Source: Actinomycetospora endophytica | Lineage (GTDB): Bacteria; Actinomycetota; Actinomycetes; Mycobacteriales; Pseudonocardiaceae | DNA: 64,000 nt | Reading direction: 5' to 3' | NCBI RefSeq assembly: GCF_021026375.1 | Contig: NZ_JAJNDB010000005.1 | Location: forward strand, 310,001-374,000 | Part shown: positions 32,338 through 47,565 of the stretch, in pieces | Numbering within the stretch: the stretch's first letter is position 1 | Layout of the letters: every line of letters starts with the position of its first letter | Made by a program: the position numbers and the translations under genes | Notes under the pieces: model-generated | Told to the model about the DNA's origin: nothing | The model's database searches: none | Seen by the model: the letters and a program-made list of their open reading frames with translations, nothing else

Positions 32338-32670
32338 GTTCAGTGACCCCCCATGGTCACGGGGGCTCGCGGGAGGAGTAGCGACGGGGGCGCCTTGGTT
32401 GACCCCCGACCGCGTCACCGCCAGCTTCGCCCTGGTGTGCGCTTGACCCGGCTATCGCCACTGCGAGCGTGGTCCGTTACCCGCTCCGTATCAGCGTTCC
32501 GGTGTGTCGTCGCGACACGCCGGAAAACCTTGATGCGGACCTTCTGAGACTCACCCGTTCGGTTTAGTCATAGAACGAACCGTGCCACACAGCGTCGCCC
32601 CCGACGGACGCAGACTGTGCGTCCTCGGCCTTTCGGCGACCTTTCAGCGTTGTCAACGCTGTGTGACAGA
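32338..32670. other. Intergenic region upstream of polysaccharide operon
   Basis: About 330 bp separating the polysaccharide operon from the end of the truncated SARP gene. It contains AT-richer sequence around 32560-32580 that may hold the operon promoter, plus two elements near 32630-32661 listed separately. No gene is supported. Confidence 0.6.
32630..32646 (-). promoter_or_regulatory. Possible SARP box (TGAAAG-N5-CGAAAG)
   Basis: On the minus strand TGAAAG (32646-32641) and CGAAAG (32635-32630) are spaced with an 11-bp period, as in the four better sites at 36.6-46.7 kb. It points toward the polysaccharide operon, but the start codon is about 290 bp away instead of 54-63 bp, and one half-site is imperfect. 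Immediately upstream is a near-perfect palindrome AGCGTTG-T-CAACGCT (32647-32661). Confidence 0.35.
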
Positions 32671-34137
32671 TCACCCCTTCGAGGTGTTGCCCTCGCGGAG
32701 ATCGTCATGTGGCTCGCCGGTGATCGCCTCGACGGCGCCCTCACGGGTGCCATGTCTGCCGAGTACGTCGATCACCTCGGCCACGTGTCGAGCCAGCCCG
32801 CCGGACCGTTCGACGACGGCGGACACCAGGGCGTCGTCGGGCTGGAGGTGCGCGAGCCGGCGCCGCACGAGCAGCGCCACCGCTTCCGGGCTGAGCGGGC
32901 CGAGGACCCGGGTGGTGACAGCGTGCTGGGCGGCAAGGTCACTGAGCGAAACCGCGCAGTGCGGGTCACCGGCACCGTCGGAGATCCGGGCCGCCAGGAC
33001 GATGACGACACCGGCCGGCGGCCCCCGACGAGCCAGACCACGCAGCGCCTCCAGCGACGCGGCGTCGGCCTGGTCCGCGTCGTCGAGCGCGAGCAGCAGG
33101 GGCGCGTCCTGTGCGAGCCAGGCGAGCCGCTGGTGCACCCACACCCCGAGCTCACAGCCGCGGGCCTCACGACGGACCCCGAGCTCGGCCATGACCCTGC
33201 GCCAGAACGCGGCGGCCGGCTCGCCCTGCCGCCAGGCGGAGACGGCGGTCCTGGCCCCGATGCCGTGGGCGTCGTTCACCGCGGCGCGCAGCAGCGCGCT
33301 CTTCCCCACCCCGGCGCGCCCGCGCAGGACGACCAGCCGGCCGTCGTCGTGGAGGGCATCGAGGATCGAGTCCCGCACGTCGTCCCGCCCGATCAGCTCG
33401 GGGGTACGGGGCCGCTCCCGGGCGGGGCGGGACGTGTCGAGCGAGCCGTACAGGGCACGTAGCTGGGGACCCGGCTCGGCGTCGATCTCGTCGCGCAGGC
33501 GGCGCCGCACCTCGAGATAGGTGTCGACGGCGGCGCGGTGCCGGCCGCCGTCGCGCAGCGCGCGGATCAGGAGCGTCGCCAGCTCCTCGTCGAGGCGGTC
33601 CTCCGAGATCAGCAGGTCGGCGGCCTCGCCACAACGTCCTGCCGCCAATAGCAGCGAGCCGTGGTGGACGGTGAGCGCGCGGCGGCGCTGCTCGGCGGCG
33701 CGGCGGGCCTCGACGAGCCGCTCGGCGTCGTACCCGGGGAAGGGCGTGCCGCGCCAGGCCGCGCGGGCTGCCTCGTGGTCGGCGACGTCGTCACCGTGCA
33801 GGGCGGTCTCGGTGAGGCGGTGGAAGCGCAGCAGGTCGACGGCGTCCCGGCAGATGTGCAGCGTGTACGAGCCGGCCGCGGCGGTGATCCATGGTTCCTC
33901 GCGCTCCCCCAGCCAGGCCCGCAGGCGGCTCAGGGCGATGTGGAGGGTGCTGCGCGGGTTCTGGGGCAGATCCTCGCCCCAGGCCTGGTCGATGAGCACG
34001 TCACCGTCGACGGGCTCGCCCGCGTTCAGGGCCAGCACCGCGAGCAGCGCATTGTGGTTGCGGCTCCGCCTGAACTCGGCGACGCCGTCGCGCTCGACGA
34101 CGATCCCTCCGAGCAGACGGATCTCGACGTCGGTCAT
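32671..34137 (-). CDS. SARP-family regulator, N-terminal half only (OmpR-like HTH, BTAD, NTPase)
   Basis: 488 residues. Winged helix (about 1-95; VEIRLLGGIVVERDG, FRRSRNHNALLAVLALNAGE), bacterial transcriptional activation domain (about 100-240; LIRALRDGGRHRAAVDTYLE), then an NTPase domain with Walker A LRGRAGVGKSALLRA and Walker B LLLALDDADQ. It aligns along its length with the N-terminal half of the 1055-residue protein at 40188-43355, then stops after AVEAITGEP, where the longer protein continues into a helical C-terminal region. It is therefore a truncated paralogue; the DNA-binding and activation domains remain complete, so it may still work. Its leader is shared with the full-length copy. 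Confidence 0.82.
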   Translation of the reverse strand: MTDVEIRLLGGIVVERDGVAEFRRSRNHNALLAVLALNAGEPVDGDVLIDQAWGEDLPQNPRSTLHIALSRLRAWLGEREEPWITAAAGSYTLHICRDAVDLLRFHRLTETALHGDDVADHEAARAAWRGTPFPGYDAERLVEARRAAEQRRRALTVHHGSLLLAAGRCGEAADLLISEDRLDEELATLLIRALRDGGRHRAAVDTYLEVRRRLRDEIDAEPGPQLRALYGSLDTSRPARERPRTPELIGRDDVRDSILDALHDDGRLVVLRGRAGVGKSALLRAAVNDAHGIGARTAVSAWRQGEPAAAFWRRVMAELGVRREARGCELGVWVHQRLAWLAQDAPLLLALDDADQADAASLEALRGLARRGPPAGVVIVLAARISDGAGDPHCAVSLSDLAAQHAVTTRVLGPLSPEAVALLVRRRLAHLQPDDALVSAVVERSGGLARHVAEVIDVLGRHGTREGAVEAITGEPHDDLREGNTSKG

Positions 34138-34469: not shown

Positions 34470-35171
34470 ATGACGAGTAGCGCGACCGAATCGATTGAAG
34501 AGTTCGCGGCGGCCGCCCTCCGGGGCGGCGTGTCGACCACGATCTGCGATGCACTGGTGGCGCTCCGACCCCCCGGGGACCTACTCGCACCCCGAATGGA
34601 GATGTTGATTCCCGAGTCCACCCTTCCTGGCCGTTGCGCGATCATCACCGTGGCCATCGAGCTGGCGGACGACCGTCGATACCGACCCGTCGTCGAACGC
34701 CTCTTGGAGGAACCGTCCGATGTAGCGGAGAAGTATCCGATCACCATCTTCGACAGCGGCGCGACCCTGCGATCTGAGGCACTGGGCTGGTGGTTCGAGA
34801 CCCTCGCGAGCCGGCCGCGGTGGAGATACGAGGCCGACCGACTGATCCATACTCTCACCGGACCTGTCCTCGACCAGTGCCGCGACGCCGCCATCGCCCA
34901 CCTCACGGTCCCAGGGCGGCGCCCACGGATCCTCGGTGTGTGGGCCGCTGCCGACGTCCTGTGCGCGCTCGGTCGGATTCCGGCCGTCGAGGCGACCTGG
35001 CTCCAGTGGATACGCGACGAGCAGTTCACGAATCGCCTCGATCACAGAGGTCCTCACACCCCCGAGAACGGTACTAAGTCTGATCTGGACGGCGCGCTCC
35101 GACAGTGCCTCGAGGCGGGCGTGCTCACCCACCAAGATGAGTTGGTGCGCGCGGCCTCTGCCACCGCCTGA
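34470..35171 (+). CDS. Hypothetical protein
   Basis: 233 residues, soluble, no signal peptide or membrane segment. Short helical stretches (CDALVALRPPGDLLAPRMEM, EADRLIHTLTGPVLDQCRDA, VWAAADVLCALGRIPAVEAT) suggest an all-alpha, repeat-like fold. I recognise no family. The ATG at 34470 has an excellent GGGGGAGCT ribosome site. It sits between a truncated SARP gene and a SARP C-terminal remnant, transcribed away from the former and converging on the latter. Confidence 0.65.
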   Translation: MTSSATESIEEFAAAALRGGVSTTICDALVALRPPGDLLAPRMEMLIPESTLPGRCAIITVAIELADDRRYRPVVERLLEEPSDVAEKYPITIFDSGATLRSEALGWWFETLASRPRWRYEADRLIHTLTGPVLDQCRDAAIAHLTVPGRRPRILGVWAAADVLCALGRIPAVEATWLQWIRDEQFTNRLDHRGPHTPENGTKSDLDGALRQCLEAGVLTHQDELVRAASATA

Positions 35172-35216: not shown

Positions 35217-36612
35217 TCAAGGGATGATCGATCCCGGTGCACCCGTCATCCGGCCTCTGCGCGGCAGTCCGAACGGCAACGGTGCCACTCCATCATCGAG
35301 AACTGTGAGCAACTGACGGATCGCTGCTGACCACGGCGCCCAGCCGGCCCGCTCGGCCAGGGCGGCTGCGGCTGACCAGTCGGCCCGCGCCGTCGCCTCG
35401 TCGTCGAGCGTCCAGGCCGCGAGCCCCGTCCACAGCGTCACCGGGCCGAGTACCGCTCCCCCGAACCCGACCAGTACTGCAGCATCCGGGTCCGCGGGCA
35501 GGACCTCGCGTACTGAGGCGACCACAGCGCTGTCGCCGAGCCCGCACGCCGCGCCGGCGGCCATCGCGGCCGCAGCGCGCGTGAACCACACCCGCCCGGT
35601 CGCCGCCCGCCGGACGTACTCCGCGAGGTGAGCCCGGGCCTCGTCGTCGTGACCTGCGCAGACCTCGGCGAGAGCCGCCGCCGCGGCCCAGGCGGCGGTA
35701 TTCGGCGACTGCGACGAGGCGTACGCGGCCAGGGTCCCGAGCTCCGAGACCCGACCCTCCAGCAGACGCGACACCAGCAGGTGCGCGCCCGCGGCGATCT
35801 GTGCGGACGGCAGAGCCAGTTCGGCGGCCAGCTCCGCGGCGGCCTCGGCCCCGGGATCGCCCTCGGCGAGCAGCATCGCGGCGTCGGCCACCCGCGCCGC
35901 CCAGAGGGACCGCGGCCGGGACCAGCGTTGGGCCTCGGTGTCCAGCTCCTGGCAGAGCTTGTGGGCACGTTCGGTGTGCCCGACGGCGAGCTCGGCGGTC
36001 ATCAGCAGCTCGGTGGCGTCGAGCTGCAGGGACGGGTCCTCGGTCGCGACCGCGAGCCGGTGGGCGTCGAGGGCGACGGCGAGCCGGTCGAGGGCCGGAT
36101 ACGGCTGGTCGACCAGGGTGCGGGCCTCGAGCGCGCGGATCCGGGCCTGCGTCTCGAGGTCGTCCGTGGCGACCGCGTCCGCCAGCGCCCGAGCCTGCTC
36201 GACCAGCGCGACGATGTCCTCCCGCGCCGCTCCGGCCTCGCGGATCGTCGCGGCGAGCAGGTCGAGCTGGCGCCGCGGCGGCAGCGACCGGCCGTCGAGG
36301 CGGTGCAGCCGAGCGAGTCGTCGGGCATCACCGAGGACGGAGAGTCCCAGCGGCTCGTCACCGATCGCGACCAGCACCGCGAGCTCGTCGTCGCCGGCCT
36401 CCAGAGCCGCGTCGAGGGCGGGGGTCTGGTCCGGATCCGTGCTGTTCAGTGCCTGCACCGTGGACGAGCCGCCGCGGCCGGTCGTCGTCGGGAACAGCTG
36501 GCCGGGGCGGCGTCGAGAAGCGCGAGGGCCTCCGGCTGTGGCGGCGCCGCACCCGCCGCGTCACGCAGCACGGTGAACCCGTCGGCGCCGTCGAGCGGTT
36601 CGAGTTGGAAGG
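35217..36612 (-). pseudogene. Remnant of SARP regulator, C-terminal part with frameshifts
   Basis: The stretch codes for a protein closely matching about the last 450 residues of the full-length regulator at 40188-43355 (shared blocks include GDDELAVLVAIGDEPLGLSV, ATELLMTAELAVGHTERAHK and ADPDAAVLVGFGGAVLGPVT). The match begins around 36612 with LEPLDGADGFTVLRDAAGAA, continues in a second frame with PAVPDDDRPRRLVHG, and then in a third frame as an uninterrupted 413-residue run from 36458. A segment of about 20 residues is missing near the start, and the DNA-binding and NTPase domains are absent. The 413-residue frame could still be translated, but without a regulator N-terminus; I treat it as decaying. 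Confidence 0.75.
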
Positions 36613-36650
36613 TACAAGGCCGTACGGGTTGTCCCGCTCTGCGACAGGCG

Positions 36651-36667
36651 TGAAAGCCCGATGAAAG
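36651..36667 (+). promoter_or_regulatory. SARP-type direct repeat operator (TGAAAG-N5-TGAAAG)
   Basis: Two perfect TGAAAG half-sites at 36651-36656 and 36662-36667, an 11-bp period (one helical turn). The second half-site begins 55 bp before the ATG of the gene at 36717. The period is that known for direct-repeat sites bound by SARP regulators near the -35 region. Three other sites in the window have the same spacing and position. Confidence 0.65.
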
Positions 36668-36716
36668 CGCCCCTTGCGCTCATTCCCGCGAACGGGAGTG
36701 ACGACCAAGGGGACTC

Positions 36717-37295
36717 ATGGCAACGACAGGTGCGCTCGAGGCCATCGCAAGGTGCGGCCGTCGGGACGGGGGCGTACGGCGCGGCGGGCTCGCGGTCGAC
36801 GCCGTCACCGTCTCGCTGCTCGCGATCGTCGCTCACCTCTGGGCTCCAGTGCTGGTCGTCGCCGTGGCGTGGCGGCTCGCCGTCGTCGGGGTGGTCGACA
36901 TCGTCACCAACCTGCTGCCGATCCTCGAGGTCGACGGGCACTGGGCGCTGTCGGACTACCTCGACGAGCCCGAGCTCTCGCCCCGTGCCCGGACCGCGCT
37001 GGGTCGTTTCCTGCGACGACGTCCTCGTGAGGACGGCGAGCCACGGTGGTTGGCGGTGTACGGCGCGGTCAGCCTCGCGGGTGGGATCGGTCTCCTCGTG
37101 GGCGGGGCGCTGGTCTGGTGGGCCGTCGCGCACGACCTCGTCGCCGCTCTGTTCACGGGGAACGTCACCGACATCGTGGTCGGGGTGATCGTCGTCGGGC
37201 CGGTGGTGCTCGGTCTGCTGGTCAGCTCGCTCGGCCTGGTCCTCGAGGTGCTCCTCGACCCGACACGGTCCGAGCCGAAAGTGAAAGGCCCCTGA
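36717..37295 (+). CDS. Membrane protein resembling the C-terminal half of an M50-type metalloprotease
   Basis: 192 residues with about three to four membrane helices. The central sequence NLLPILEVDGHWALSDYLDE closely resembles the NxxPxxxxDGyW element that follows the second helix group in M50-like 'peptide zinc metalloprotease' proteins. The HExxH active-site helix that should precede it is absent, so it cannot act as a protease in the known way. Either it is a truncated derivative or a non-catalytic partner. ATG at 36717 with AAGGGG upstream. Controlled by a SARP-type box; its 3' end overlaps the box of the next gene. Confidence 0.6.
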   Translation: MATTGALEAIARCGRRDGGVRRGGLAVDAVTVSLLAIVAHLWAPVLVVAVAWRLAVVGVVDIVTNLLPILEVDGHWALSDYLDEPELSPRARTALGRFLRRRPREDGEPRWLAVYGAVSLAGGIGLLVGGALVWWAVAHDLVAALFTGNVTDIVVGVIVVGPVVLGLLVSSLGLVLEVLLDPTRSEPKVKGP

Positions 37296-37298
37296 AAG
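37282..37298 (+). promoter_or_regulatory. SARP-type direct repeat operator (TGAAAG-N5-TGAAAG)
   Basis: Perfect TGAAAG half-sites at 37282-37287 and 37293-37298, 11-bp period. The second begins 54 bp before the GTG start of the patatin gene (37347). A -10-like CACTAT lies about 12 bp downstream. The first half-site overlaps the last codons of the preceding gene, so the patatin gene has its own promoter although it is only about 50 bp downstream. Confidence 0.65.
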
Positions 37299-37346
37299 TG
37301 TGGCGTGGCTCACTATTGGCAGCGCGTTCAGCACGAGGGGGGCTCG

Positions 37347-40199
37347 GTGGCCACGCAGTCAAGACGCACCTTCGGGTTCGGAATGATCATCTTGGGTTCG
37401 GTGCTGTCACGGACCCGCGAACAGGCGCTGCCACCGAGCGGCGGGCCGGCGCCGACGCCTCAATTGCCGGCGGGACCCGCAGCTCACCGACCACTCCCGC
37501 CGCCTCACCCTCGATGGGTGCCGCCGCGACCGCTGGCGTTGGTCGTCATGGTCGGCGCGATCGCGTCACTGGTGGCCGGGCTGCTCGCATACCGCGGGCA
37601 GGTTGAGGGCCTGCCCGAGCTGCAGCTGTCCGGCACCGCCGATGCGGCGCGGGCGATCGTGGCCGAGGTAGGAAGCATCGCACCGTTCCAGGACGCGCTG
37701 GCCGCCGATTACCGGCTCATCGCGGGCTACACGACGTTTCTCGTGCTGGTCCTGGTCGTCGGGTGGCAGTGCTTCGCCGGGCCCAGTGCGCGGCGCGCTG
37801 CGGGCGGCCTTGCGGGCATTGCCGTCGTGGCAGGCCTGCTCGATGTCGGGGAGAACCTCGCCGTCGATCGCGGGCTCCTCGGACTCGCCGCAGTTCCGGA
37901 CCAGAATGCCTGGTGGGTGGTCGCCGCCGCGGCGGACACCCTCAAGCTGGTTCTGCTCGTACCGACGGCAGGCGCCGCCATCGTGACCCTCCTGCTGATC
38001 GGCGGGCGAATGCTTCGCCCGCCAGGACGATCCTCACTGTGCCGCGTCGTGCCGGGCTCGGTTGTCACGGGGGAGCCGCGCGGATACCTACCGGACGTCG
38101 TCCGGGTCGAAGGCGATCGTCCGGCCCGCAGGCCCGGCGTGTGCGTTTCCGGCGGCGGGATCCGATCGGCATGCGTGACCCTCGGAGCCCTCCAGGTCCT
38201 CCGCGCGAATGGACGACTCACCGACGCCGGCTACCTCTTCTCGGTTTCCGGTGGCGGTTACATGACGGGGGCACTCCGCCTCGCCATGCAGCGTCCGGGA
38301 ACCGGCAACGGCGCACGAGCGCTGTCTCCGGACGCCTACTCCGAGAGCACCCCCGAGCTCGCCTACATGCACGCCCACGGTGACTACATCGCTCAGGGAG
38401 CGGTGCAGTGGGTCAGGGCCCTCGGCGTCGTGCTCGCGCACCTGCTGTACGCACTGTTCCTGCTCGCGTCCCTCGCCGTCGGGGTGGGCCTGCTGCTCGG
38501 CCTGTTCTACCGGGAGTTCCGGATCGCGGGACCGGGCCTCGCGCACGCCTTCGATCTGAGATCTCCGTTGGGGGGAGACCCCCTTCCGACGGATCACTCT
38601 CCGGGCGCGACGTGGACGATCGGAGCGCTGCTCGTCCTGACGGTGCTGCTCTGGCTCATCGCGGGCGCGGTGGAGGGTCTGACCGGAGAGCCGCACCCGC
38701 GGTGGCGAGGCGCCGCCTGGGTCGTCGCCGGCCTGACGCTGCTCGTCGCCGTGGTGACGATGCTCGTGCCCGCCCTCGTCGAACTGGTGATCTGGCGTCC
38801 GGATGTCGCGAAGTTGACGGGGTCCGTCGGCGTGATCGGGAGTGTGCTGACGACCCTCAAGACGCTCGGGTCGAAGGCGTCCTCCGGGGCTCCGTCGGGC
38901 CGCTCCCTGGCGAAGGCGACACAGTACGTCTGGCCGGTGGTGGTGGTCATCGTCGTCGCGCTGATCGTCTTCGGGATGCTGCTCGGGATGGCGGCGACGC
39001 TCGATGCGGTGGTCCAGTCGCGCGGCGACCGGCCGTTGCTTCTCTACGGCCTCGCGGCAGGCGTCGTGGTCGCCGGGGTCGCGGCCAAGTTCTTCGACCA
39101 GACCAGCGCCAGTCTCCACCCCTTCTATCGTCGCCGGTTGAACTCCCTGTATTCGCGCCGAGAGGGTCCCGACGCCGTGCCATACGGCTATGACGAACGG
39201 ACGAAACTGTCCACCTACGCAACCTCGGTCGACGGTTATCCGAGATTCGTCTTCGTTGCTACGGCACACGTGAAAGAGCCCGGGGTCGCGACGCGCCCGG
39301 TCCCGTACACCTTCAGCAGCAACTGGGTCGGAGGGGCGCACGTCGGATACGTACCGACAGAGGCACTGATCGACAACTCACCGCCCTGCTATCGCGGCGA
39401 CCTCACGCTCCTCGGCGCTGTCGCGATCTCCGGCGCCGCATTCGCGTCCGCCATGGGCGTCGTGAGCAAACCCTTCGAGGTACTGCTGGCCCTCAGCAAT
39501 GCTCGTCTCGGCGCCTGGCTGCCCAATCCGGTCCGGCTGGGCCAGGATGCCGCCGTTGCCGGAGGCTGGACCCGTCGTCGGTTGCCCCGCGTACGCAGCG
39601 AGAGCTACCACGCGCGGGAGGTGTTCGGCAGCCACCCCGTCGACGATCCGCTCCTGCTGATCACCGACGGAGGGCACTACGACAACCTCGGCCTCGTCGA
39701 GGCCCTGCGGCACCGATGCGAGACGGTGGTCGTCGTCGACTCGAGCAACGACACCCCGCCGTACCCGACCACGCTCATCGACGCGATGACCCTCGCCGAC
39801 ACCGAACTCGGCGTGACGATCGACCTGGACGATCCGGATGCCCTCGCCCCCGGCTCGGTCCTCGCCGACGGCGACCTGCCGCAGCCGTGGGAATCCCTCC
39901 TCCCGAGGTTCTCGTCGAGCGCCGTCGTCACCGGGACGATCCACTACCCCGCGGGACCGCTGGGCCCTGCTTGGGACGGCACGCTCGTCGTCGTGAAGGC
40001 TCGGCTGACGCTCGACCTGCCCTACGAGGTCCTCGCCTACGCAGCGTCGAACCCTGACTTCCCGTACGACTCCACCGCGGACCAGTGGTTCGACGCGGCC
40101 CAGTTCGACGCCTATCACCGGCTGGGTCGCCGTCTGGGCAAGGTGGCGGTCGAACGGCTGACCGGCCTCGGGGTGCCGGTGTCTCACTCAGCGGCGTAG
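37347..40199 (+). CDS. Large membrane protein with patatin-like phospholipase domain
   Basis: About 950 residues. Several N-terminal helices, then a split patatin/cPLA2-like domain: PGVCVSGGGIRSACVTLGAL (oxyanion GGGxR), LFSVSGGGYMTGALRLA (nucleophile serine), and near the C-terminus LLITDGGHYDNLGLVEAL (catalytic DGG). Between nucleophile and DGG lies a long insertion with about six membrane helices (e.g. AHLLYALFLLASLAVGVGLL). It should hydrolyse acyl esters of lipids at the membrane. I chose the GTG at 37347 for its GAGGGGGG site; the frame is open from 37305. It ends 12 bp inside the convergent full-length SARP gene. Confidence 0.82.
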   Translation: MATQSRRTFGFGMIILGSVLSRTREQALPPSGGPAPTPQLPAGPAAHRPLPPPHPRWVPPRPLALVVMVGAIASLVAGLLAYRGQVEGLPELQLSGTADAARAIVAEVGSIAPFQDALAADYRLIAGYTTFLVLVLVVGWQCFAGPSARRAAGGLAGIAVVAGLLDVGENLAVDRGLLGLAAVPDQNAWWVVAAAADTLKLVLLVPTAGAAIVTLLLIGGRMLRPPGRSSLCRVVPGSVVTGEPRGYLPDVVRVEGDRPARRPGVCVSGGGIRSACVTLGALQVLRANGRLTDAGYLFSVSGGGYMTGALRLAMQRPGTGNGARALSPDAYSESTPELAYMHAHGDYIAQGAVQWVRALGVVLAHLLYALFLLASLAVGVGLLLGLFYREFRIAGPGLAHAFDLRSPLGGDPLPTDHSPGATWTIGALLVLTVLLWLIAGAVEGLTGEPHPRWRGAAWVVAGLTLLVAVVTMLVPALVELVIWRPDVAKLTGSVGVIGSVLTTLKTLGSKASSGAPSGRSLAKATQYVWPVVVVIVVALIVFGMLLGMAATLDAVVQSRGDRPLLLYGLAAGVVVAGVAAKFFDQTSASLHPFYRRRLNSLYSRREGPDAVPYGYDERTKLSTYATSVDGYPRFVFVATAHVKEPGVATRPVPYTFSSNWVGGAHVGYVPTEALIDNSPPCYRGDLTLLGAVAISGAAFASAMGVVSKPFEVLLALSNARLGAWLPNPVRLGQDAAVAGGWTRRRLPRVRSESYHAREVFGSHPVDDPLLLITDGGHYDNLGLVEALRHRCETVVVVDSSNDTPPYPTTLIDAMTLADTELGVTIDLDDPDALAPGSVLADGDLPQPWESLLPRFSSSAVVTGTIHYPAGPLGPAWDGTLVVVKARLTLDLPYEVLAYAASNPDFPYDSTADQWFDAAQFDAYHRLGRRLGKVAVERLTGLGVPVSHSAA

Positions 40200-43100
40200 G
40201 CCCAGCGGCAACGGCGCTCGCGGGTCCTCGACGGCGAGGAGGCATCGTCTGGCCGCCGCCGCCCACGGTGGCCACCCCGCCCGGTCGGCGAACCCGACCG
40301 CTGCCGCGAAGTCACGACCCGCCGTCGTGACGTCGTCGAGCGTCCACGCGGCGAGGCCGGTCCAGAGCGTCACCGGCCCGACCGCCGCTCCCCCGAACCC
40401 GACCAGCACCGCGCTGTCGGGATCGGCGGGCAGGACCTCGCGGACGTGCGCAGCGACCGCGGTGTCGCGCAGGTTGAAGGCGGCCGCCGTGGCGACAGCC
40501 CGGGCCGCGCGGGCGAACCACATCGCCGGGTTGACGGTGCGACGCGAGTACTCGGCCAGATGTGCCCGGGCCTCGTCGTCGTGCCCTGCACAGGACTCTG
40601 CGAAGGCGGCTCCGGCGGACCACGCCGCGGTGTTGGGCGACCGGGCCGCGGCGTACGCCGCGAGTTCGGCGATCTCCGCGACGGTGCCGGCGAGCAGGTG
40701 CTTGACCAGCAGGTGAGCGCCGGCGGCGAGCGGTGCGCCGGGCAGTCCGAGCGCCCCACCCCGTTCGGCGGCGCGCTCCGCCGCGGCATCGGCGCCCGGG
40801 TCGCTCTCGGCCAGCAGCATCGCGGCCTCGGTGACCTGCGCGGCCCAGATCGAGCGCGGGCGGAACCACCGCTCGGCCGCGGTCTCGAGCTCCACCCGCA
40901 GCTTGTGGGCGCGCTCGGTGTGCCCGACCGTCAGCTCGGCGCTCATGAGCAGTTCGGTCGCGTCGAGGTGCAACGACGGGTCACCGGTGGCGACGGCGAG
41001 CCGGTGCGCGTCGGCGGCGACGGCGAGCCGCTCGAAGGCCGGCCGGCAACCGTCGACCAGCTCGCGGGCCTCCAGCGCACGCACCCGGGCCTGCGCCCGC
41101 GGGTCGTCGTCGGCGATCCGGTCCGCCAGCGCCCGCGCCTCGCCGATGAGCGCGGGCGCCGCGTCCTGGGCGGTGGCCTCGGCTTCACGAACGGTGGCCA
41201 CGAGCAGGTCGAGCCGTCGCGCCGGCGGCAGCCGCCGGTCGAGCAGACGGCACAGCCGCGCGTAGCGGCGCGGATCGCCCTGAACCGACAGGCCCAGCGG
41301 CTCGTCGCCGATCGCGACCTGCACCGCCAGCTCGTCGTCGCCGGCGGCCATCGCGACGGCGAGGGCCTCGTCGAGCGCCTCGTCCGCATCCTCGCCGTCG
41401 GCCACCCCGAGCGCAGAGAGGCAGAGCGCCCGATGAGCGAGCAGCCGGGCCCGGGCGTCGTCGGGAACGGCCGGCAGCGCCGCGTCGAGCAGCGCGAGCG
41501 CCTCGGGCAGTGCTCGCCGCCGGTAGGACTCCGCGCCGGCCGCCACCCGCGCCGTCGCCACCCGGGCCGCCGGCAGCAACGACGTCGCACCCTCGCTGTG
41601 GCGCAGGACGGTGAAGACGTCGGCGTCGCCGTCGAGCGCGTCGAGGCGTGCGAGGTGCAGGTGCGCGGCGCGGACCGGGGCGACTCCGGCGCGCAGGCCG
41701 TCGGCGTCGAGGTCGTGGCGCAGCACGTAGCGGTCGCGCTCGCCGACGACGAGGCCCGCCCGCGCGGCCACCTCGAGGTCCTCGGACACCTCGAGCGCTC
41801 GGCGGCCGAGCACCGCGGCGAGACCGGTCAGGTCGATGGGACGCAGGACGGCAAGGGCCTCGACGGCGCAGCGGGTCGAGTCCGGGAGCTGGGCGGCCTG
41901 GTGCCCGACGACGGCGCGCACCTGCTCGGGGACCTCGGTGATCGCCCGAGCGGCCTGGTGTCGGGTGGTGCACCGACCGAGCAGGTCGAGCAACGCCGTG
42001 ACGTGGAGCGCGAGGCCACCGGACCGCTCGACGACCGCAGCGACGAGGTCGTCGTCGGGTACAAGGGCGGCGAGGCGGCGCCGGACGAGGGTCGCGACGG
42101 CGTCCGGTGCGAGCGGGCCGATCTCGTGGGTGGTCACGTCGCTGTGGGTGGTGAGGTCGGCCCGGGCGCGGTCCCAGTGCGGGTGCTCGACGGCGTCGGG
42201 GGTCCGGGCCGCGACGACGACCACCACCCCGGCGGGCAGGCCGCGACGAGCGAGCGCACGCAGGACGTCGAGCGAGGCGGAGTCGGCGCGGTGGGCGTCG
42301 TCGAGCGCGATCAACAACGGCGCTTCGGCGGCGAGCCGTCCGAGCTGCTCGTGGACCCAGGGACCGAGGTCGCGGTCCGAGACCGCCCCGCGGATCTCGA
42401 GGTCGTCGATCACCTCGTGCCACGGGGCGGCGGGGGCGTCGTTCTCGCCCCAGGCACTCGCGGCGGTCCGGGCCCCGCGGGCGCCGGCAGCGTGGACGAC
42501 GGTTCGCAGGACAGCGGTCTTCCCTGCCCCCGCCCGGCCGTGCAGGACGATCATCCGGCCGTCGTCGTGCAGCGCGTCGAGGACGGTTCCGGCGACGGCC
42601 TGACGGCCCACGATTGCCGGCGGCCTCGTGGTGGCGGGCCGGGGCCTGAGCGTGGCGAGCGAGCCGTAGAGCTTTCGGAGCTCCCGGCCGGGCTCGACGT
42701 CGAGCTCGTCGCGCAGCCGGCGCCGGACCTCGAGATAGGTGTCGACGGCGTCCCGGTGCCGGCCGCGGTCCTTCAGGGCGCCGATGAGCAGCGCCGAGAG
42801 CTCCTCGTCGGTTCGGTCCTCGCCGGCGAGGAGGTCGACGACGTCGCCGGGGCGCTCCTGTTGGAGCAGGAGTTCGGCATGACGGACGGTCAGGTTGCGC
42901 CGGCGCTGCTCGGCGCCGCGGCGGGCCTCGGTGAGCCGGACCGACTCGATCCCGGGGAACGGTGTGCCGCGCCAGACGACGCGGGCGTCGTCGTACTTCG
43001 CGAGGTCGGCGCCGCGGGCCGCCTCGTCGGCGAGGCGCTGGAAGTGCAGGAGGTCGACCGCGTCCGGGTCGAGGTGGAGCGTGTACAGCCCACCGCGGGC

Positions 43101-43355
43101 GGTGATCCACGGCTCGGGCCGCTCCCCCAGCCAGGCCCGGAGTCGGGTGAGCGCGATCTGCAGGGCGCCACGAGGGTTCTGTGGCAGATCCTCGCCCCAC
43201 GCCTCGTCGATGAGCAGGTCGCCGGCGATGGGCTGGCCGGCATGGACCGCCAGGAGCGCGAGCAGCGCCGCGTGGTTCCGGCTGCGCCGCGATACCGCGG
43301 CCGCATCCCGCTCGACCGCCACCTCCCCGAGCAGGCGGATTCGCACGAACGTCAT
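40188..43355 (-). CDS. Full-length SARP-family regulator with NTPase and helical repeat domain
   Basis: 1055 residues. OmpR-like winged helix (about 1-95; SRRSRNHAALLALLAVHAGQ), BTAD (100-240; LIGALKDRGRHRDAVDTYLE), STAND-like NTPase (Walker A LHGRAGAGKTAVLRT; Walker B LLIALDDAHR), then about 550 residues of helical, TPR/ARM-like sequence ending LPLGLRR. This is the AfsR/large-SARP design: NTPase and repeats sense a signal, the BTAD-winged helix activates promoters through direct-repeat operators. ATG at 43355 with GGGGGGAAC in front. It is the best candidate to bind the TGAAAG direct repeats upstream of four nearby genes. Three damaged or truncated copies lie in the same 15 kb. Confidence 0.88.
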   Translation of the reverse strand: MTFVRIRLLGEVAVERDAAAVSRRSRNHAALLALLAVHAGQPIAGDLLIDEAWGEDLPQNPRGALQIALTRLRAWLGERPEPWITARGGLYTLHLDPDAVDLLHFQRLADEAARGADLAKYDDARVVWRGTPFPGIESVRLTEARRGAEQRRRNLTVRHAELLLQQERPGDVVDLLAGEDRTDEELSALLIGALKDRGRHRDAVDTYLEVRRRLRDELDVEPGRELRKLYGSLATLRPRPATTRPPAIVGRQAVAGTVLDALHDDGRMIVLHGRAGAGKTAVLRTVVHAAGARGARTAASAWGENDAPAAPWHEVIDDLEIRGAVSDRDLGPWVHEQLGRLAAEAPLLIALDDAHRADSASLDVLRALARRGLPAGVVVVVAARTPDAVEHPHWDRARADLTTHSDVTTHEIGPLAPDAVATLVRRRLAALVPDDDLVAAVVERSGGLALHVTALLDLLGRCTTRHQAARAITEVPEQVRAVVGHQAAQLPDSTRCAVEALAVLRPIDLTGLAAVLGRRALEVSEDLEVAARAGLVVGERDRYVLRHDLDADGLRAGVAPVRAAHLHLARLDALDGDADVFTVLRHSEGATSLLPAARVATARVAAGAESYRRRALPEALALLDAALPAVPDDARARLLAHRALCLSALGVADGEDADEALDEALAVAMAAGDDELAVQVAIGDEPLGLSVQGDPRRYARLCRLLDRRLPPARRLDLLVATVREAEATAQDAAPALIGEARALADRIADDDPRAQARVRALEARELVDGCRPAFERLAVAADAHRLAVATGDPSLHLDATELLMSAELTVGHTERAHKLRVELETAAERWFRPRSIWAAQVTEAAMLLAESDPGADAAAERAAERGGALGLPGAPLAAGAHLLVKHLLAGTVAEIAELAAYAAARSPNTAAWSAGAAFAESCAGHDDEARAHLAEYSRRTVNPAMWFARAARAVATAAAFNLRDTAVAAHVREVLPADPDSAVLVGFGGAAVGPVTLWTGLAAWTLDDVTTAGRDFAAAVGFADRAGWPPWAAAARRCLLAVEDPRAPLPLGLRR

Positions 43356-43388
43356 GGTTCCCCCCAGATGTCACGATGAGTGAGCACC
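43356..43388 (-). promoter_or_regulatory. Conserved leader upstream of full-length SARP gene
   Basis: Toward the ATG: TCACTC-N3-GTGACA, a short spacer, GGGGGGAAC, one base, ATG. Sequence and spacing match the leader of the truncated SARP gene at 34138-34167. Includes the ribosome site and a partial TGTCAC/GTGA inverted repeat that may be an operator. Confidence 0.55.
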
Positions 43389-43508
43389 TGGGGCGGAAGA
43401 GTACGACGTTCGGGAAGGCATGCATGCGGCTATATGGGCGAATTGATGCTACTCAGCGCTGATTCCAGAGAGTCCTCTTCATTGCGCGACGATCTCCGTG
43501 TGGCGAAG

Positions 43509-43525
43509 TGACAGGCCACTGAAAG
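43509..43525 (+). promoter_or_regulatory. SARP-type direct repeat operator (TGACAG-N5-TGAAAG)
   Basis: Half-sites TGACAG (43509-43514; one mismatch) and TGAAAG (43520-43525), 11-bp period, with the second starting 58 bp before the GTG of the small gene at 43578. A -10-like TCTACT lies 10 bp downstream. It sits in the divergent region between that gene and the full-length SARP gene. Confidence 0.6.
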
Positions 43526-43577
43526 CGGCGCACGCTCTACTACGGGTTGTATCGCGTCAGCGGGGTTGGGGGACGCC

Positions 43578-43769
43578 GTGAAGATCGTGGTGGGAATCGT
43601 CGTGGTGGGAGCTCTCGGCGTGGCGGCGTGGGCGACAGCGCCGTGGGTGTCGATGGGCCGGCGAGGCACCGTCGACGGGCGGACGTTGGCCGCGTGCCGG
43701 TCCGAGTGCGCCATCCCGGCGCCGCGGCAGGCTGGGGACGACGTGCCGTCGCGGGTACGGAGCGCGTGA
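43578..43769 (+). CDS. Small membrane-anchored or secreted peptide
   Basis: 63 residues beginning VKIVVGIVVVGALGVAAWAT, a single hydrophobic helix or uncleaved signal, followed by a short polar region with two cysteines (ACRSEC) and a charged tail. No family recognised. The GTG at 43578 has GGGGGAC upstream; a TTG at 43566 is an alternative. It is divergent from the full-length SARP gene and is preceded by a SARP-type box at the same distance as three other genes, which is the main support that it is real. Confidence 0.5.
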   Translation: MKIVVGIVVVGALGVAAWATAPWVSMGRRGTVDGRTLAACRSECAIPAPRQAGDDVPSRVRSA

Positions 43770-43846
43770 CCCCCTCGGTCGCTGGTGATCACTCCGGGAG
43801 GCGTCGGCTGCTCACCACCACGGGACGGGAACCCGGCCGTTCGGAA

Positions 43847-46012
43847 TCAGTCCGACCGACGTGGGCCGAGGAAGAACCCGCGGAGCTTGCGACGGACGAT
43901 GACCCCCGGGACCAGCCACAACGGGTTGAGCGTGAGCCGGGTCCGCAGCATGGTGCCGACCTTCGGGGCCACGAATGCGATGGGTTTCGGCTGGTCTGTG
44001 TGCGCCGCGCGCAGCATCCGAGCGGTGCTGTCGAGCAGACCGTTCACGGTGTTGCTGTCGATCTCATGGCGTAGGTCGATCTCCGTGCGGTTCCCGACCG
44101 CTTTCGTCTCGACGTCGAGGTCCTGTCCGGCTCCCTCGACATCCCAGATGCCTTGCTGGAGCTCCAGGATGTCGGTGGAATCCAGTCCCAGCGCCCGGCC
44201 CAGTTGCGCGGCCGCATCCAGTCGGCCCCAACCCCAGTCCCAGGCGCGCCACTCCGCGTGGCCGAAGGCGCCGAAGTGCCCGAGACGGGTGCCGTAGAGC
44301 TTCTTGTCCCCGAAACCCGCGGCGCTCGGAGCCAGGGGGCTGTCGTTGTCCGGTCCGAGGCGGAGCAGCTGGAAGGGCGGTGGGGCGGAGCGGACCTGCG
44401 GCGCCAGGGCCTGGCTGACGATCTCGACGGCGACGACGGCTTCGGTGACGACCTCGACGGTCGTGCCCACCGCGCTCGCATAGGCATCGATGGCGCGCGA
44501 GAGCTCGGTACGGCGTGTCCGACTCCCCTGCTCGAGCGCGCGACTCACCATCTCGCCGATCACCGGACCACCCGGTCTTGGATCCTTCGCCTCGTCGACG
44601 ACCCCGTCCTCGATGCGTTCCCGCTCCTCGACCAGCCCCCCGAGCGCCCTGCTCACCTCACGCGCTCCCGCACTCAGGGCCGCGGTAGTGCCGCGCTCGT
44701 GGAGGCGTCCCCGCAGATCGGCGAGCAGGTTGCGGACCATCCGCTCCGCTGCCGAGTGCCCGTACATCGCGAGGTCCTCCGCCGAGACCGGAGGCTCGAC
44801 GGAAGCGCCCGGCGTCGGGTTGCTGAGCAGGGGCTCCAGCCGGATCACGTTCTCGGTACGTCCCTGGATGCGGTCGACGAACGCGGCGACGTCGTAGTGC
44901 GGCTGCTGCAACCGGTACTGCGCGCGCAGGAAGCTGCTGCCGGCCCTGAGCGCGGCGATCACGTCCTTGCTCACGGCCGGGTCCACGGCAGCGCGAAGGG
45001 CGCTCAGCGCGGCGCCGCGCTGGGCATCGGCCGTCGAGAAGATCCTGGTGAGGTCGTCGAGGTCGTCACGGAAGTCCGCCTCGCCGGGAAAGGTCAACGC
45101 CGAACGGAGCACCGTGAACCACGACGGCTCGTCGGTCCCGATCGCGGACGCAGCAGGCAGGACGCCACCGCCGCCGTCGGACGGGACGACGTAGACCACG
45201 ATCCGCTGGACGTCGCCGTCGACGGGACGAGCGACGATCTCGTCGAGCACCGGACCGAAGGGGGCGTTGTCGAGCACGCCGCCGTCCATCAACCGGTCCG
45301 TGAAGTCCTGAGGCCCGATCGCACGGTCGAGAAGCGCCGTGGGCTCCTCGATCGGCGCGAACGCGACGGGGAAGCCGGCCGACGCCCGCGCCGCGGGCGC
45401 CAGCGCCCCGAAGCTCGTCTCGAACTCGTTCCCCTCGCCCGACGGCGGCTGCGACCGGAACCGGTAGACGCGCCGGTGGTCCGGTGACAGGAAGCCCTGC
45501 GAGAAGGAGTCCGCGTAGGCGCGCCGATGGTCTCCGAGCGCCGTGCTGGTCACGAACAGGGTGACCGGTGACGACGGCGCGCCCGAATCGCTGCTGTCGC
45601 GTATCCCGCAGAGGACCTCGCCGACCGTCTTCTGGAAGAAGCCGCCGTCCAGGACCGATGACGAGGCCTTCTTCGGCGGCAGGAGCTTGCCCCGCGAGAT
45701 GCTGCCGCTCTCCTGCCACATCTGCTTGAGGTCGGGAAGGGTCGTGCCCAGGCCGTAGCTCGTGGCCAGGATCGTGCCGTTGAGTCCGCCGGCGCTGGTA
45801 CCGGCGACGATGTCGATCTCGACCGTCGTGTCCGAATCGGCACAGATCCTGCGCCACCGCTCGTACTGCGGCAGGTCGTCGTCCGCGAGTCCGCCGCGTC
45901 GGCCCTGCGATGCGCGGGCCGCGAGATCGAGCTCCTTCGCGACTCCCCCCATCCAGACCGCAAGACTGATCCCGCCATTCATGACCAACGCCAGACGCAC
46001 AGTCCGAGACAT
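43847..46012 (-). CDS. Patatin-like phospholipase family protein
   Basis: 721 residues. A complete patatin domain occupies about residues 1-290: LALVMNGGISLAVWMGGVAK (oxyanion loop), DIVAGTSAGGLNGTILATSY (GxSxG nucleophile) and RLMDGGVLDNAPFGPVLDEI (DGG catalytic Asp). The C-terminal about 400 residues are helical and of unknown function (YRLQQPHYDVAAFVDRIQGR, GARRxLSRAIDAY-like helices). No membrane segment or signal. Likely an intracellular lipid acyl hydrolase. ATG at 46012 with a GGGGGGCGGAG site. A different architecture from the membrane patatin at 37347, so not a simple duplicate. No SARP box precedes it. Confidence 0.85.
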   Translation of the reverse strand: MSRTVRLALVMNGGISLAVWMGGVAKELDLAARASQGRRGGLADDDLPQYERWRRICADSDTTVEIDIVAGTSAGGLNGTILATSYGLGTTLPDLKQMWQESGSISRGKLLPPKKASSSVLDGGFFQKTVGEVLCGIRDSSDSGAPSSPVTLFVTSTALGDHRRAYADSFSQGFLSPDHRRVYRFRSQPPSGEGNEFETSFGALAPAARASAGFPVAFAPIEEPTALLDRAIGPQDFTDRLMDGGVLDNAPFGPVLDEIVARPVDGDVQRIVVYVVPSDGGGGVLPAASAIGTDEPSWFTVLRSALTFPGEADFRDDLDDLTRIFSTADAQRGAALSALRAAVDPAVSKDVIAALRAGSSFLRAQYRLQQPHYDVAAFVDRIQGRTENVIRLEPLLSNPTPGASVEPPVSAEDLAMYGHSAAERMVRNLLADLRGRLHERGTTAALSAGAREVSRALGGLVEERERIEDGVVDEAKDPRPGGPVIGEMVSRALEQGSRTRRTELSRAIDAYASAVGTTVEVVTEAVVAVEIVSQALAPQVRSAPPPFQLLRLGPDNDSPLAPSAAGFGDKKLYGTRLGHFGAFGHAEWRAWDWGWGRLDAAAQLGRALGLDSTDILELQQGIWDVEGAGQDLDVETKAVGNRTEIDLRHEIDSNTVNGLLDSTARMLRAAHTDQPKPIAFVAPKVGTMLRTRLTLNPLWLVPGVIVRRKLRGFFLGPRRSD

Positions 46013-46174
46013 CGCTCCGCCCCCCGGAAGTCTTCATCGACCAGAGCACGAATATGACAGCGAGTCAGTGAATCGTCGGACCAGATCCTCCCAACGGCGC
46101 ACTCATCGTGCTCTACCGGCCTAAACCTGACCCTGGCGCAGCTCAACGACTGGTCGACGTCGCACCCGCTGTTT
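46013..46174. other. Intergenic region upstream of patatin gene
   Basis: About 160 bp between the patatin start and the SARP remnant; presumably holds the leftward promoter. Contains AACCTGACCCT, which recurs at 34231, but this is too short to interpret. Confidence 0.4.
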
Positions 46175-46640
46175 TCAGCGGCGCAGGCCCAGGGGCAACG
46201 GCGCCTCCGGATCGTCGAGCGCTCTGAGGCACGCACGGGCCGCCGCGGCCCAGGGCCGCCAACCGGCGCGATCCGAGAGCGCGACAGCCGCGGACACATC
46301 CCGGCGGGCCGTCGGGATGTGGCCGAGCGTCCACGCCGCGAGCCCCGTGTACTGGGTGACCGGGCCGAGCACCGCGCCGCCGAACCCGACGAGCACCGCG
46401 GCGTCGGGGTCGGCAGGCACCGTCTCCCGCACGTGGGCTGCGACGCGCGCATCGCGAAGGTTGAAGGCGGCGCCGGCAGCGATCGCCCTCGCCGCCGGTG
46501 CGAACCACATCGCCGGATTTCTCGTGCGCCGCAGGTACTCCGCGAGAATGCTCCCGGGCCTCGTCGTCGTGCCCGGCGCATGTCTCGGCAAAGGCCGCTC
46601 CGGCGGCCCAGGCCGCGGTGTTGGGGGACCTTGCGGATGG
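46175..46640 (-). pseudogene. Remnant of SARP regulator, last about 150 residues, frameshifted
   Basis: Codes for the extreme C-terminus of the large SARP family: SARSPNTAAWAAGAAFAETC and GHDDEARE in one frame, then after a shift YLRRTRNPAMWFAPAARAI, ADPDAAVLVGFGGAVLGPVT and PEAPLPLGLRR in the next. Comparison with 40188-43355 places a one-base insertion near 46546-46553. Similarity stops abruptly around 46640. There is no start, DNA-binding domain or NTPase, so it is a dead fragment. Like the other remnant it ends just upstream of a gene with a SARP box, suggesting it is the stump of a former SARP-effector divergent pair. Confidence 0.75.
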
Positions 46641-46732
46641 CAGTCGCTGTCCGGCCATCCGGGCGGTCCACCTCTGCTCAGGACGGGCGTCGGCGTCCGG
46701 CCTCGACCCCGGCCTTCACTGCCCCGGTGGCT

Positions 46733-46749
46733 TGAAAGCCCGGTGAAAT
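46733..46749 (+). promoter_or_regulatory. SARP-type direct repeat operator (TGAAAG-N5-TGAAAT)
   Basis: Half-sites TGAAAG (46733-46738) and TGAAAT (46744-46749; one mismatch), 11-bp period. The second begins 63 bp before the ATG of the lipoprotein gene at 46807. Fourth member of the set of boxes in this locus. Confidence 0.6.
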
Positions 46750-46806
46750 GGCGTCGGTCTCTCCTTGAGCACCGCGACGGTGCGGGATTGCTTGGGGGGA
46801 ACACAC

Positions 46807-47565
46807 ATGAAGCGAGGAGTCCGCGCCGCGGTCGTTGCCGCGACCTGCGCGGCGGGTCTGACCCTGACGGCGTGCGCCAGTGGTGGAGCCGCTGCTTCGG
46901 CGAGTCTGCAGACGAACGCGTTCACTGCCTGGCTCGAGGAAGCCGCCCGTGTCGCGGACGAAGGAGTGCCGGAGGGACGCGTGATCGCCGAATCCAAGCC
47001 GTTGCTCGACGCCCCGGCCGGCGTGCGACCCGCCGATCTCGACCACCTCCTGCAGTCGGCTCCCCCGCCGACCGTCGACCCGCAGGTCGCGCCACTCGTG
47101 CGGACCCTGAAAGCACGGCAGGCGGCCACTACGCTCGCCGCGAGCGCCCTGACGGCCGACAACGCCGGCGGCGCCGCCATCGATGCGACGGCGGCCGCAT
47201 CGACTCAGTACCCCCAGGTGGAGGCGGACCTCCAGACGGTCGGGCGCGACGTCGTCAAGGACATTGCCTGTAACGCGCTCCTCGATCAGCTCCAGCCTTC
47301 GGAGCAGCAGGAGGCCGAGAACGCGGGCGAGCCCGCGTGGGTCCAGATCGGAGCCCCGACGGTCCAGGCGATCGAGACCGTGACGGCCAAGCGGTTTTCA
47401 CCCGAGTTCGGAGGGCTCGTCGAGTGGAGCACCTGGGGGTACGGGATCGGCAAGGACGCCGACGACATCGTCAGCGCTGCCGCGAACACGGCCACCACGC
47501 CCGACGCCACCCACGCTCCCGCGTTCTACTACTACGTCCGCATCTGCCTGGCGCCGCCGTCCTGA
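46807..47565 (+). CDS. Lipoprotein of unknown function
   Basis: 252 residues. A classical lipoprotein signal MKRGVRAAVVAATCAAGLTL followed by the lipobox LTAC (cysteine about residue 23) and a GGAAASAS linker. The mature part is mostly helical with a tyrosine-rich end (HAPAFYYYVRICLAPPS). No known domain recognised. ATG at 46807 has GGGGGGA 6 bases upstream. It is preceded by a SARP-type box, so it is probably activated by the SARP regulator encoded nearby, and it is followed by a strong hairpin at 47601-47632. Confidence 0.75.
   Translation: MKRGVRAAVVAATCAAGLTLTACASGGAAASASLQTNAFTAWLEEAARVADEGVPEGRVIAESKPLLDAPAGVRPADLDHLLQSAPPPTVDPQVAPLVRTLKARQAATTLAASALTADNAGGAAIDATAAASTQYPQVEADLQTVGRDVVKDIACNALLDQLQPSEQQEAENAGEPAWVQIGAPTVQAIETVTAKRFSPEFGGLVEWSTWGYGIGKDADDIVSAAANTATTPDATHAPAFYYYVRICLAPPS

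What the first reader, a model, noticed from the sequence alone, without database searches (positions are those of the whole stretch)
36640..46810. A local SARP operator: TGAAAG direct repeats, 11-bp period, before four genes
Seen: TGAAAG-N5-TGAAAG at 36651 and 37282 (perfect), TGACAG-N5-TGAAAG at 43509 and TGAAAG-N5-TGAAAT at 46733. In all four the half-sites are exactly 11 bp apart and the second half-site lies 54, 55, 58 or 63 bp before the start codon; each gene also has a G-run ribosome site. Established: SARP regulators activate promoters through short direct repeats of one-turn period near -35. Inference: the 1055-residue SARP at 40188-43355 (and perhaps the truncated copy at 32671) controls a regulon of an M50-like membrane protein, a membrane patatin, a small membrane peptide and a lipoprotein, with no biosynthetic gene cluster involved.
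Basis: partly seen in the sequence, partly recalled or inferred. Interest (0 to 1): 0.85.

Follow-up and report, generated by a model that had tools for sequence, protein, structure and literature searches.

The report
SARP-type promoter repeats near regulator genes
Four genes beside a large antibiotic-type regulator in an actinomycete share a rare two-repeat promoter signal, and relatives carry the same signal at envelope and sugar-coat genes and just past the regulator's own stop codon, which suggests a local control circuit that can now be tested.

Summary
The four TGAMAG-N5-TGAAAK sites are the only exact matches in the 6.98 Mb genome. In 18 Actinomycetospora genomes, 16 of 26 TGAAAG/YGAAAG pairs with gaps 0-20 have gap 5. 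All 10 exact genus sites have a T 16 bp after the second repeat, ending a -10-like hexamer. This is published SARP geometry. The 1055-aa protein matches AfsR by sequence and predicted fold. New: 17 of 31 full-length SARP genes in the genus carry such a site 50-185 bp past their stop, pointing back into the gene. Against: nine of the 31, including four 74-75% orthologues, have no site in the flanks scanned; patatin homologues in other genera lack it; binding is untested. Best reading: a SARP-activated envelope regulon, perhaps with antisense feedback.

The parts
36651..36667 (+). Operator 1, TGAAAG-N5-TGAAAG; -10-like hexamer GCTCAT at 36678-36683; precedes gene 36717
37282..37298 (+). Operator 2, TGAAAG-N5-TGAAAG; -10-like CTCACT at 37309-37314; precedes the membrane patatin-like gene; same promoter in relative G010 (L091:8396)
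43509..43525 (+). Operator 3, TGACAG-N5-TGAAAG; -10-like TCTACT at 43536-43541; divergent from the intact SARP; precedes the small membrane protein; homologues or likely homologues in six relatives have a site
46733..46749 (+). Operator 4, TGAAAG-N5-TGAAAT; -10-like TCTCCT at 46760-46765; precedes the lipoprotein gene
32614..32646 (-). Operator 5 (missed by reader), TGAAAG-N5-CGAAAG with -10-like CACAGT; about 300 bp before the EPS priming transferase and 24 bp past the truncated SARP; footprint also in G003, G015, G016
40188..43355 (-). Intact large SARP, 1055 aa: winged helix, BTAD, STAND-type ATPase, all-helical C-terminus
32671..34137 (-). Truncated SARP paralogue, 488 aa (winged helix, BTAD, ATPase domain; no C-terminal helical part), 61% identical
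35259..36419 (-). C-terminal SARP remnant, 68% identical, before operator 1
46184..46637 (-). Frameshifted C-terminal SARP remnant, 74% identical over 46184-46546, before operator 4
36717..37295 (+). 192-aa membrane protein resembling the C-terminal part of an intramembrane protease model
37347..40199 (+). 950-aa membrane protein with patatin/cPLA2-like motifs (by eye), converging on the SARP gene end and overlapping it by 12 bp
43578..43769 (+). 63-aa small membrane protein (APWVxMxRxGTxD family)
46807..47565 (+). 252-aa lipoprotein-like protein (by eye)
30844..32418 (-). Exopolysaccharide priming polyprenyl glycosylphosphotransferase (TIGR03025, PF02397), downstream of operator 5

Best explanation
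The sites are SARP operator-promoters. Two SARP winged-helix domains would bind TGAAAG-N5-YGAAAG, sitting where a -35 would be, and bring RNA polymerase to a weak -10 whose last T is 16 bp after the second repeat. The large SARP at 40188-43355, alone or with the truncated copy, activates a small set of envelope genes: the membrane patatin-like protein, the protease-like protein, the small membrane protein, the lipoprotein and probably the first gene of the exopolysaccharide cluster. The locus grew by duplication of the SARP gene; other copies decayed while the operators stayed. Shown: sequences, rarity, spacing, the -10 T, footprint conservation, SARP adjacency, SARP-like fold. Inferred: that this SARP binds these sites, that binding activates, and the order of duplication and decay.
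For: Only 4 exact matches in 6.98 Mb, all within 10.1 kb. Gap 5 takes 16 of 26 hits, the other 20 gaps share 10; the reversed control over all gaps gives 7. T at +16 in 10 of 10 exact genus sites, the only invariant column outside the repeats among 45 columns. Flanks drift while both repeats stay fixed at the small-protein and EPS promoters. Refined pattern, fitted to sites already seen: 28 sites versus 1 control in 18 genomes, 16 within 1.5 kb of a SARP of this family. PWM scan around 31 full-length SARP genes: gap 5 gives 17 convergent, 3 divergent and 3 same-strand upstream sites; each of 19 other gaps gives 0 or 1 in all. In another genus TGAAAG-N5-TGAAAG-N10 plus TACGGT-like hexamers lie about 200-215 bp before SARP genes (L210, L213, L214), and in G025 108 bp past a SARP stop (L215). 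The model fits AfsR in its transcription complex, TM 0.74-0.76 on the target over the SARP domain. Published: the AfsR box is two 11-bp repeats overlapping -35; in SARP promoters the 3' repeat is 8 bp from -10 (PMC10936776, passages).
Against: No binding or expression data. Nine of 31 SARP genes have no site in the flanks scanned (L030-L034, L094, L097, L098, L100), among them four 74-75% orthologues with a near-identical recognition helix. 0 of 24 patatin-like homologues in other genera have a site under 4 mismatches near the start. AfsR's DNA-contacting T88 aligns with isoleucine here. Looser scans lose the signal: 34 hits against 10 control at one mismatch in the genus, 17 against 12 at two mismatches in the own genome. 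The PWM was trained on 23 genus sites, which include those of 5 of the 17 convergent genes.
Confidence: 0.75

Rival explanations
1. The motif is bound by a different SARP paralogue (the genome has 12 BTAD matches) or by several paralogues of one shared specificity, so the 1055-aa SARP is one of several regulators of these promoters. This overlaps with the best explanation rather than excluding it.
For: 12 BTAD matches in the genome; sites lie beside SARPs only 37-44% identical to the window SARP; the four genomes with 74-75% orthologues have refined sites only beside the other paralogue.
Against: In the window and in G010 the sites cluster around intact and broken copies of the closest clade.
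Confidence: 0.45
2. The repeats belong to another OmpR-type response regulator, such as PhoP, whose boxes are also direct repeats of about one turn.
For: AfsR and PhoP sites overlap at the Streptomyces afsS promoter (PMC10972967, passages).
Against: Only a handful of good sites per genome, mostly at SARP, EPS and envelope genes; a global phosphate regulator should have many scattered sites. The PHO box sequence and orientation would differ (recalled).
Confidence: 0.07
3. They are promoters of an alternative sigma factor with TGAAAG as its -35.
For: Fixed distance to a T-ended -10-like hexamer.
Against: The repeat pair at 11 bp is itself conserved, and the two copies end 10 and 21 bp from the hexamer, not at the usual -35 spacing (usual spacing recalled).
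Confidence: 0.05
4. The four sites are alike only because the promoter region was duplicated recently, not because it is under selection.
For: SARP copies in the window are clearly duplicates.
Against: Spacers and flanks of the four sites look unrelated while both repeats and the -10 T are fixed; orthologous promoters keep them across species.
Confidence: 0.05

Closest known systems
AfsR of Streptomyces coelicolor and the afsS promoter (afs box)
   Same: Large SARP with ATPase and repeat domains; two 11-bp direct repeats overlapping -35; poor -10 (CACTGT) (PMC10936776, passages); AfsR is the best PDB sequence match and the best match of the SARP domain by fold.
   Different: Half-site CGTT(T/C)ATCGNN (PMC10972967, passages) versus YGAAAG; T88 replaced; several envelope and EPS genes as predicted targets, not antibiotic control.
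PimR / SanG / PolR SARP-LAL operators
   Same: Heptameric direct repeats with 4-bp spacers (PMC5930380, passages).
   Different: CGGCAAG consensus, three repeats in PimR's main operator, different C-terminal domains, antifungal clusters.
PapR2 (from Streptomyces pristinaespiralis, recalled)
   Same: SARP recognising heptamers; SARP sites are heptamers with 4-bp spacers (PMC7040171, passages).
   Different: GTCAGSS consensus; antibiotic cluster; a small SARP (recalled).
EmbR of Mycobacterium tuberculosis
   Same: SARP-family regulator whose deletion alters cell-wall ultrastructure and secretion-pathway operons rather than antibiotics (PMC9239209, passages).
   Different: FHA domain instead of ATPase and repeats; no operator of this kind in the passages seen.

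Membership tests
SARP regulators | OmpR-type winged helix followed by BTAD | tested here: met
   PF03704 E 2.3e-14; PF00486 E 3.4e-5 but under its cut-off; AfsR and EmbR structures matched by sequence and fold
SARP regulators | Large subtype: ATPase plus helical repeats at the C-terminus | tested here: met
   PF13191 E 4.1e-14; all-helical C-terminus in the model and STAND-TPR top hit 6mfv, TM only 0.21 on the query; no Pfam TPR hit
SARP regulators | Binds its target DNA and activates transcription | not testable with these tools
   needs EMSA, footprinting, RNA-seq
SARP operator | Direct repeats with 11-bp period | tested here: met
SARP operator | Repeats overlap -35, 3' repeat about 8 bp from -10 | tested here: met
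   10 bp from the TGAAAG hexamer (8 bp if the repeat is taken as 8 bp long) to a hexamer ending in T in 10 of 10 sites; transcription start not mapped
AfsR/afs box | Repeat consensus CGTT(T/C)ATCGNN | tested here: not met
   half-site is TGAAAG or YGAAAG; not filed as an afs box
PhoP (PHO box) | GTTCACC repeats (recalled) | tested here: not met
   consensus YGAAAG, on the other strand CTTTCR

The most novel reading that the evidence does not exclude
Large SARPs of Actinomycetospora control themselves through a SARP-dependent antisense promoter placed just past their own stop codon. The more active SARP there is, the more antisense RNA is made from the 3' end of its gene, giving a built-in brake; in some loci the same slot is filled by a convergent target gene (the membrane patatin-like gene, a small secreted protein).
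Probability: 0.3. Interest if true: 0.75.

Novelty: new variant of a known kind. Interest (0 to 1): 0.55.

Why it matters
In the papers seen here SARPs are mostly antibiotic switches. A SARP-type code that can be read from sequence alone (TGAAAG-N5-YGAAAG-N10-NNNNNT) points to membrane, lipoprotein and exopolysaccharide genes in a non-Streptomyces genus. The half-site differs from those of AfsR, PimR and PapR2, and a paper search for SARP with TGAAAG listed four papers, none of them by title about SARP regulators. Because many diverged SARPs keep the same kind of operator beside them, the set is a natural series for working out how SARP recognition helices choose DNA. The conserved site past the SARP stop codon suggests an unusual feedback design that one transcription-start mapping experiment could test.

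Tried and rejected
Antisense gene at the convergent sites: the 1100-codon antisense frame is open because TTA, CTA and TCA codons are rare; the in-phase antisense frame has 0-3 stops in the 30 SARP genes counted. I therefore do not claim a protein there, although the 8 class B sites have a conserved G-rich ribosome-like site and a start codon 64-67 bp downstream.

Conserved operator at patatin-like homologues outside the genus: 0 of 24 examined have fewer than 4 mismatches near the start; 25 were fetched, and one (L146) gave no row in my re-search and was dropped.

Anti-phage defence reading for the STAND ATPase and patatins: 0 PADLOC matches for 5 proteins.

Loose scans: 34 one-mismatch sites in the genus against 10 for the reversed control; 17 two-mismatch hits in the own genome against 12. 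So loose matches alone are not evidence. The one at C13:423542 is kept only because of its position past a SARP stop, shared with relatives.

Order-level relatives: 4 exact hits against 4 control hits in 24 genomes, i.e. chance. Two of the 28 refined genus sites (G000:C9:1865108, G013:C11:111101) have no explanation.

Full report
TGAMAG-N5-TGAAAK occurs four times in the window at the stated places and nowhere else in the 6,980,350-base genome; the reversed pattern gives 0. Distances to start codons are 55, 54, 58 and 63 bp.

THE SPACING IS SPECIFIC. In 18 genus genomes TGAAAG followed by YGAAAG at any gap from 0 to 20 occurs 26 times; 16 of the 26 have gap 5, and the other 20 gaps share 10 hits; the reversed pattern gives 7 over all gaps.

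A FIXED -10. I took the 10 exact genus sites (4 in the window genome, 1 in G006, 4 in G010, 1 in G017), chosen without regard to what follows. Outside the repeats one column is invariant: a T 16 bp after the second half-site, 10 of 10. It ends a hexamer such as TCTACT, CTCACT or TTGCCT. This matches published SARP promoters: 11-bp repeats overlapping -35, the 3' repeat 8 bp from -10 (PMC10936776, passages read).

REGULON ACROSS THE GENUS. The refined pattern YGAMAG-N5-YGAAAG-N15-T, which I fitted to sites already seen, finds 28 sites in 15 of 18 genomes (15 of 15 of those at least 90% complete and at most 5% contaminated), control 1. It misses window site 4, which ends TGAAAT. Tallied by hand, 16 of 28 lie within 1.5 kb of a homologue, or remnant, of the window SARP. 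Of the other 12: five precede homologues or likely homologues of the 63-aa small membrane protein (the G015 one is only 20% identical to the window protein), three the exopolysaccharide priming transferase, one a WecG/TagA/CpsF glycosyltransferase, one the membrane patatin homologue; two are unexplained. Alignments show both repeats fixed while flanks drift. The window has the exopolysaccharide site too, at 32646(-), with TGAAAG-N5-CGAAAG.

THE LOCUS. The window carries one intact SARP gene and parts of others: 32671-34137 (N-terminal half, 61%), 35259-36419 (C-terminal part, 68%) and 46184-46637 (frameshifted, 74% over its longer piece). Operators 1 and 4 lie between a broken copy and a target gene; operator 3 lies between the intact SARP and the small-protein gene. 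G010 has a like arrangement with one intact and one broken SARP of the closest clade. I infer duplication followed by decay of regulator copies. The 488-aa copy keeps the DNA-binding, BTAD and ATPase parts and may still act; in AfsR the isolated SARP domain activates in vitro better than the full-length protein, although the ATPase domain is needed in vivo (PMC10936776).

THE REGULATOR. Pfam BTAD and AAA_16, AfsR and EmbR as the only PDB sequence matches at E 0.01, and an AlphaFold model (mean pLDDT 88.5, pTM 0.58) in which about 246 aligned columns fit AfsR in its transcription complex (TM 0.74-0.76 on the target) make it a large SARP. The recognition helix keeps equivalents of AfsR's R92 and R94 but has isoleucine for T88, which fits a different half-site.

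SITES PAST THE STOP CODON. I scanned the flanks (about 450 bp past the stop, 500 bp upstream) of the 31 full-length SARP genes found with a PWM. Seventeen have a site pointing back into the gene: eight 157-185 bp past the stop, eight at 69-70 bp and one at 50 bp. With the gap changed to any of 19 other values the same convergent windows give 0 or 1. The PWM training set held the sites of 5 of these 17 genes; the other 12 were not in it, and the 69-70 bp group uses CGAAAG or GGAAAG repeats. Three genes have a divergent upstream site and three a same-strand upstream site, five genes in all; nine have none. The window genome's more distant SARP (C13:423701-426742, L105) is one of the 17. In G025, another genus, a perfect site with TACGGT sits 108 bp past the stop of a SARP gene, again convergent. 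What these promoters make is unknown. An antisense brake is one possibility; a lost or very small convergent gene is another; I saw no evidence for a protein.

OTHER GENERA. TGAAAG-N5-TGAAAG-N15-T gives 35 hits in 19 of 200 family genomes, 4 of the 35 in this genus, against 4 control hits. I fetched 20 stretches covering 27 of the 31 hits outside the genus. Seven of the 20 contain a SARP by tblastn at E 0.001, eight with the unmasked search. A rough hand estimate from BTAD densities (two genomes assumed) gives about 2 by chance, and several of these are the same locus in sister species, so this is modest support. Downstream genes include proteins that look exported by eye, one EspC-like gene above its cut-off and one weak WXG100 match.

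RESULTS AGAINST. Nine of 31 SARP genes have no site in the flanks scanned. Four of them are 74-75% orthologues with almost the same recognition helix. A scan of 10 kb on each side of L030-L034 found one two-mismatch hit each in L030 and L031 and none in L032-L034. Genomes of those four orthologues do have a refined site, beside another paralogue. 0 of 24 patatin-like homologues elsewhere have the motif. No experiment links protein and site.

NOVELTY. SARP operators with 11-bp repeats are well known. The TGAAAG half-site, the envelope and polysaccharide targets, and the conserved site past the regulator's stop codon are not in the passages I read of PMC10936776, PMC10972967, PMC5930380, PMC7040171 and PMC9239209. 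Searches for SARP with TGAAAG (4 of 4 listed), SARP with exopolysaccharide or Actinomycetospora (15 of 92 listed), SARP with antisense/convergent/autoregulation terms (10 of 11 listed) and SARP family with Pseudonocardia/Amycolatopsis terms (2 of 2 listed) showed no title or abstract start that reports it; apart from passages of PMC7040171 I saw only listings from these. New variant of a known kind.

Noticed in passing
G000:C9:1865108 (outside window): A perfect refined site with -10-like TGTGAT far from any SARP found, between a large gene, a DUF1906-like gene and a resolvase-like gene (by eye); possibly a mobile element.
   Followed up: partly
L218, L221, L225: In three other Pseudonocardiaceae genera the repeat plus T precedes type VII secretion-like genes: EspC-like in L221, weak WXG100 in L218, by eye only in L225. 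A SARP link to type VII secretion would echo EmbR.
   Followed up: partly
L101-L104, L108-L111 (class B): Eight of eight class B sites are followed by a conserved G-rich ribosome-like site and a start codon 64-67 bp downstream, yet the frame runs antisense through the SARP gene with no early stop; unexplained.
   Followed up: partly
family genus g50 (G068, G105, G132, G152, G168, G183, G198, G210): 63-96 BTAD matches per 10-13 Mb genome, a striking expansion; in G068 and G132 two or three operators stand close together with no SARP detected in the stretch, where G105, G152, G183 and G210 have a SARP between two operators.
   Followed up: no
window 43847-46012 (-): A second patatin-like protein (TIGR03607, Patatin, DUF3376) lies between the small-protein gene and a SARP remnant, with no operator of up to 2 mismatches upstream.
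   Followed up: no
window 34470-35171 (+): A 233-aa protein without Pfam or NCBIfam match, 59% conserved near the small-protein gene in G010; in the window it sits between two SARP fragments.
   Followed up: no
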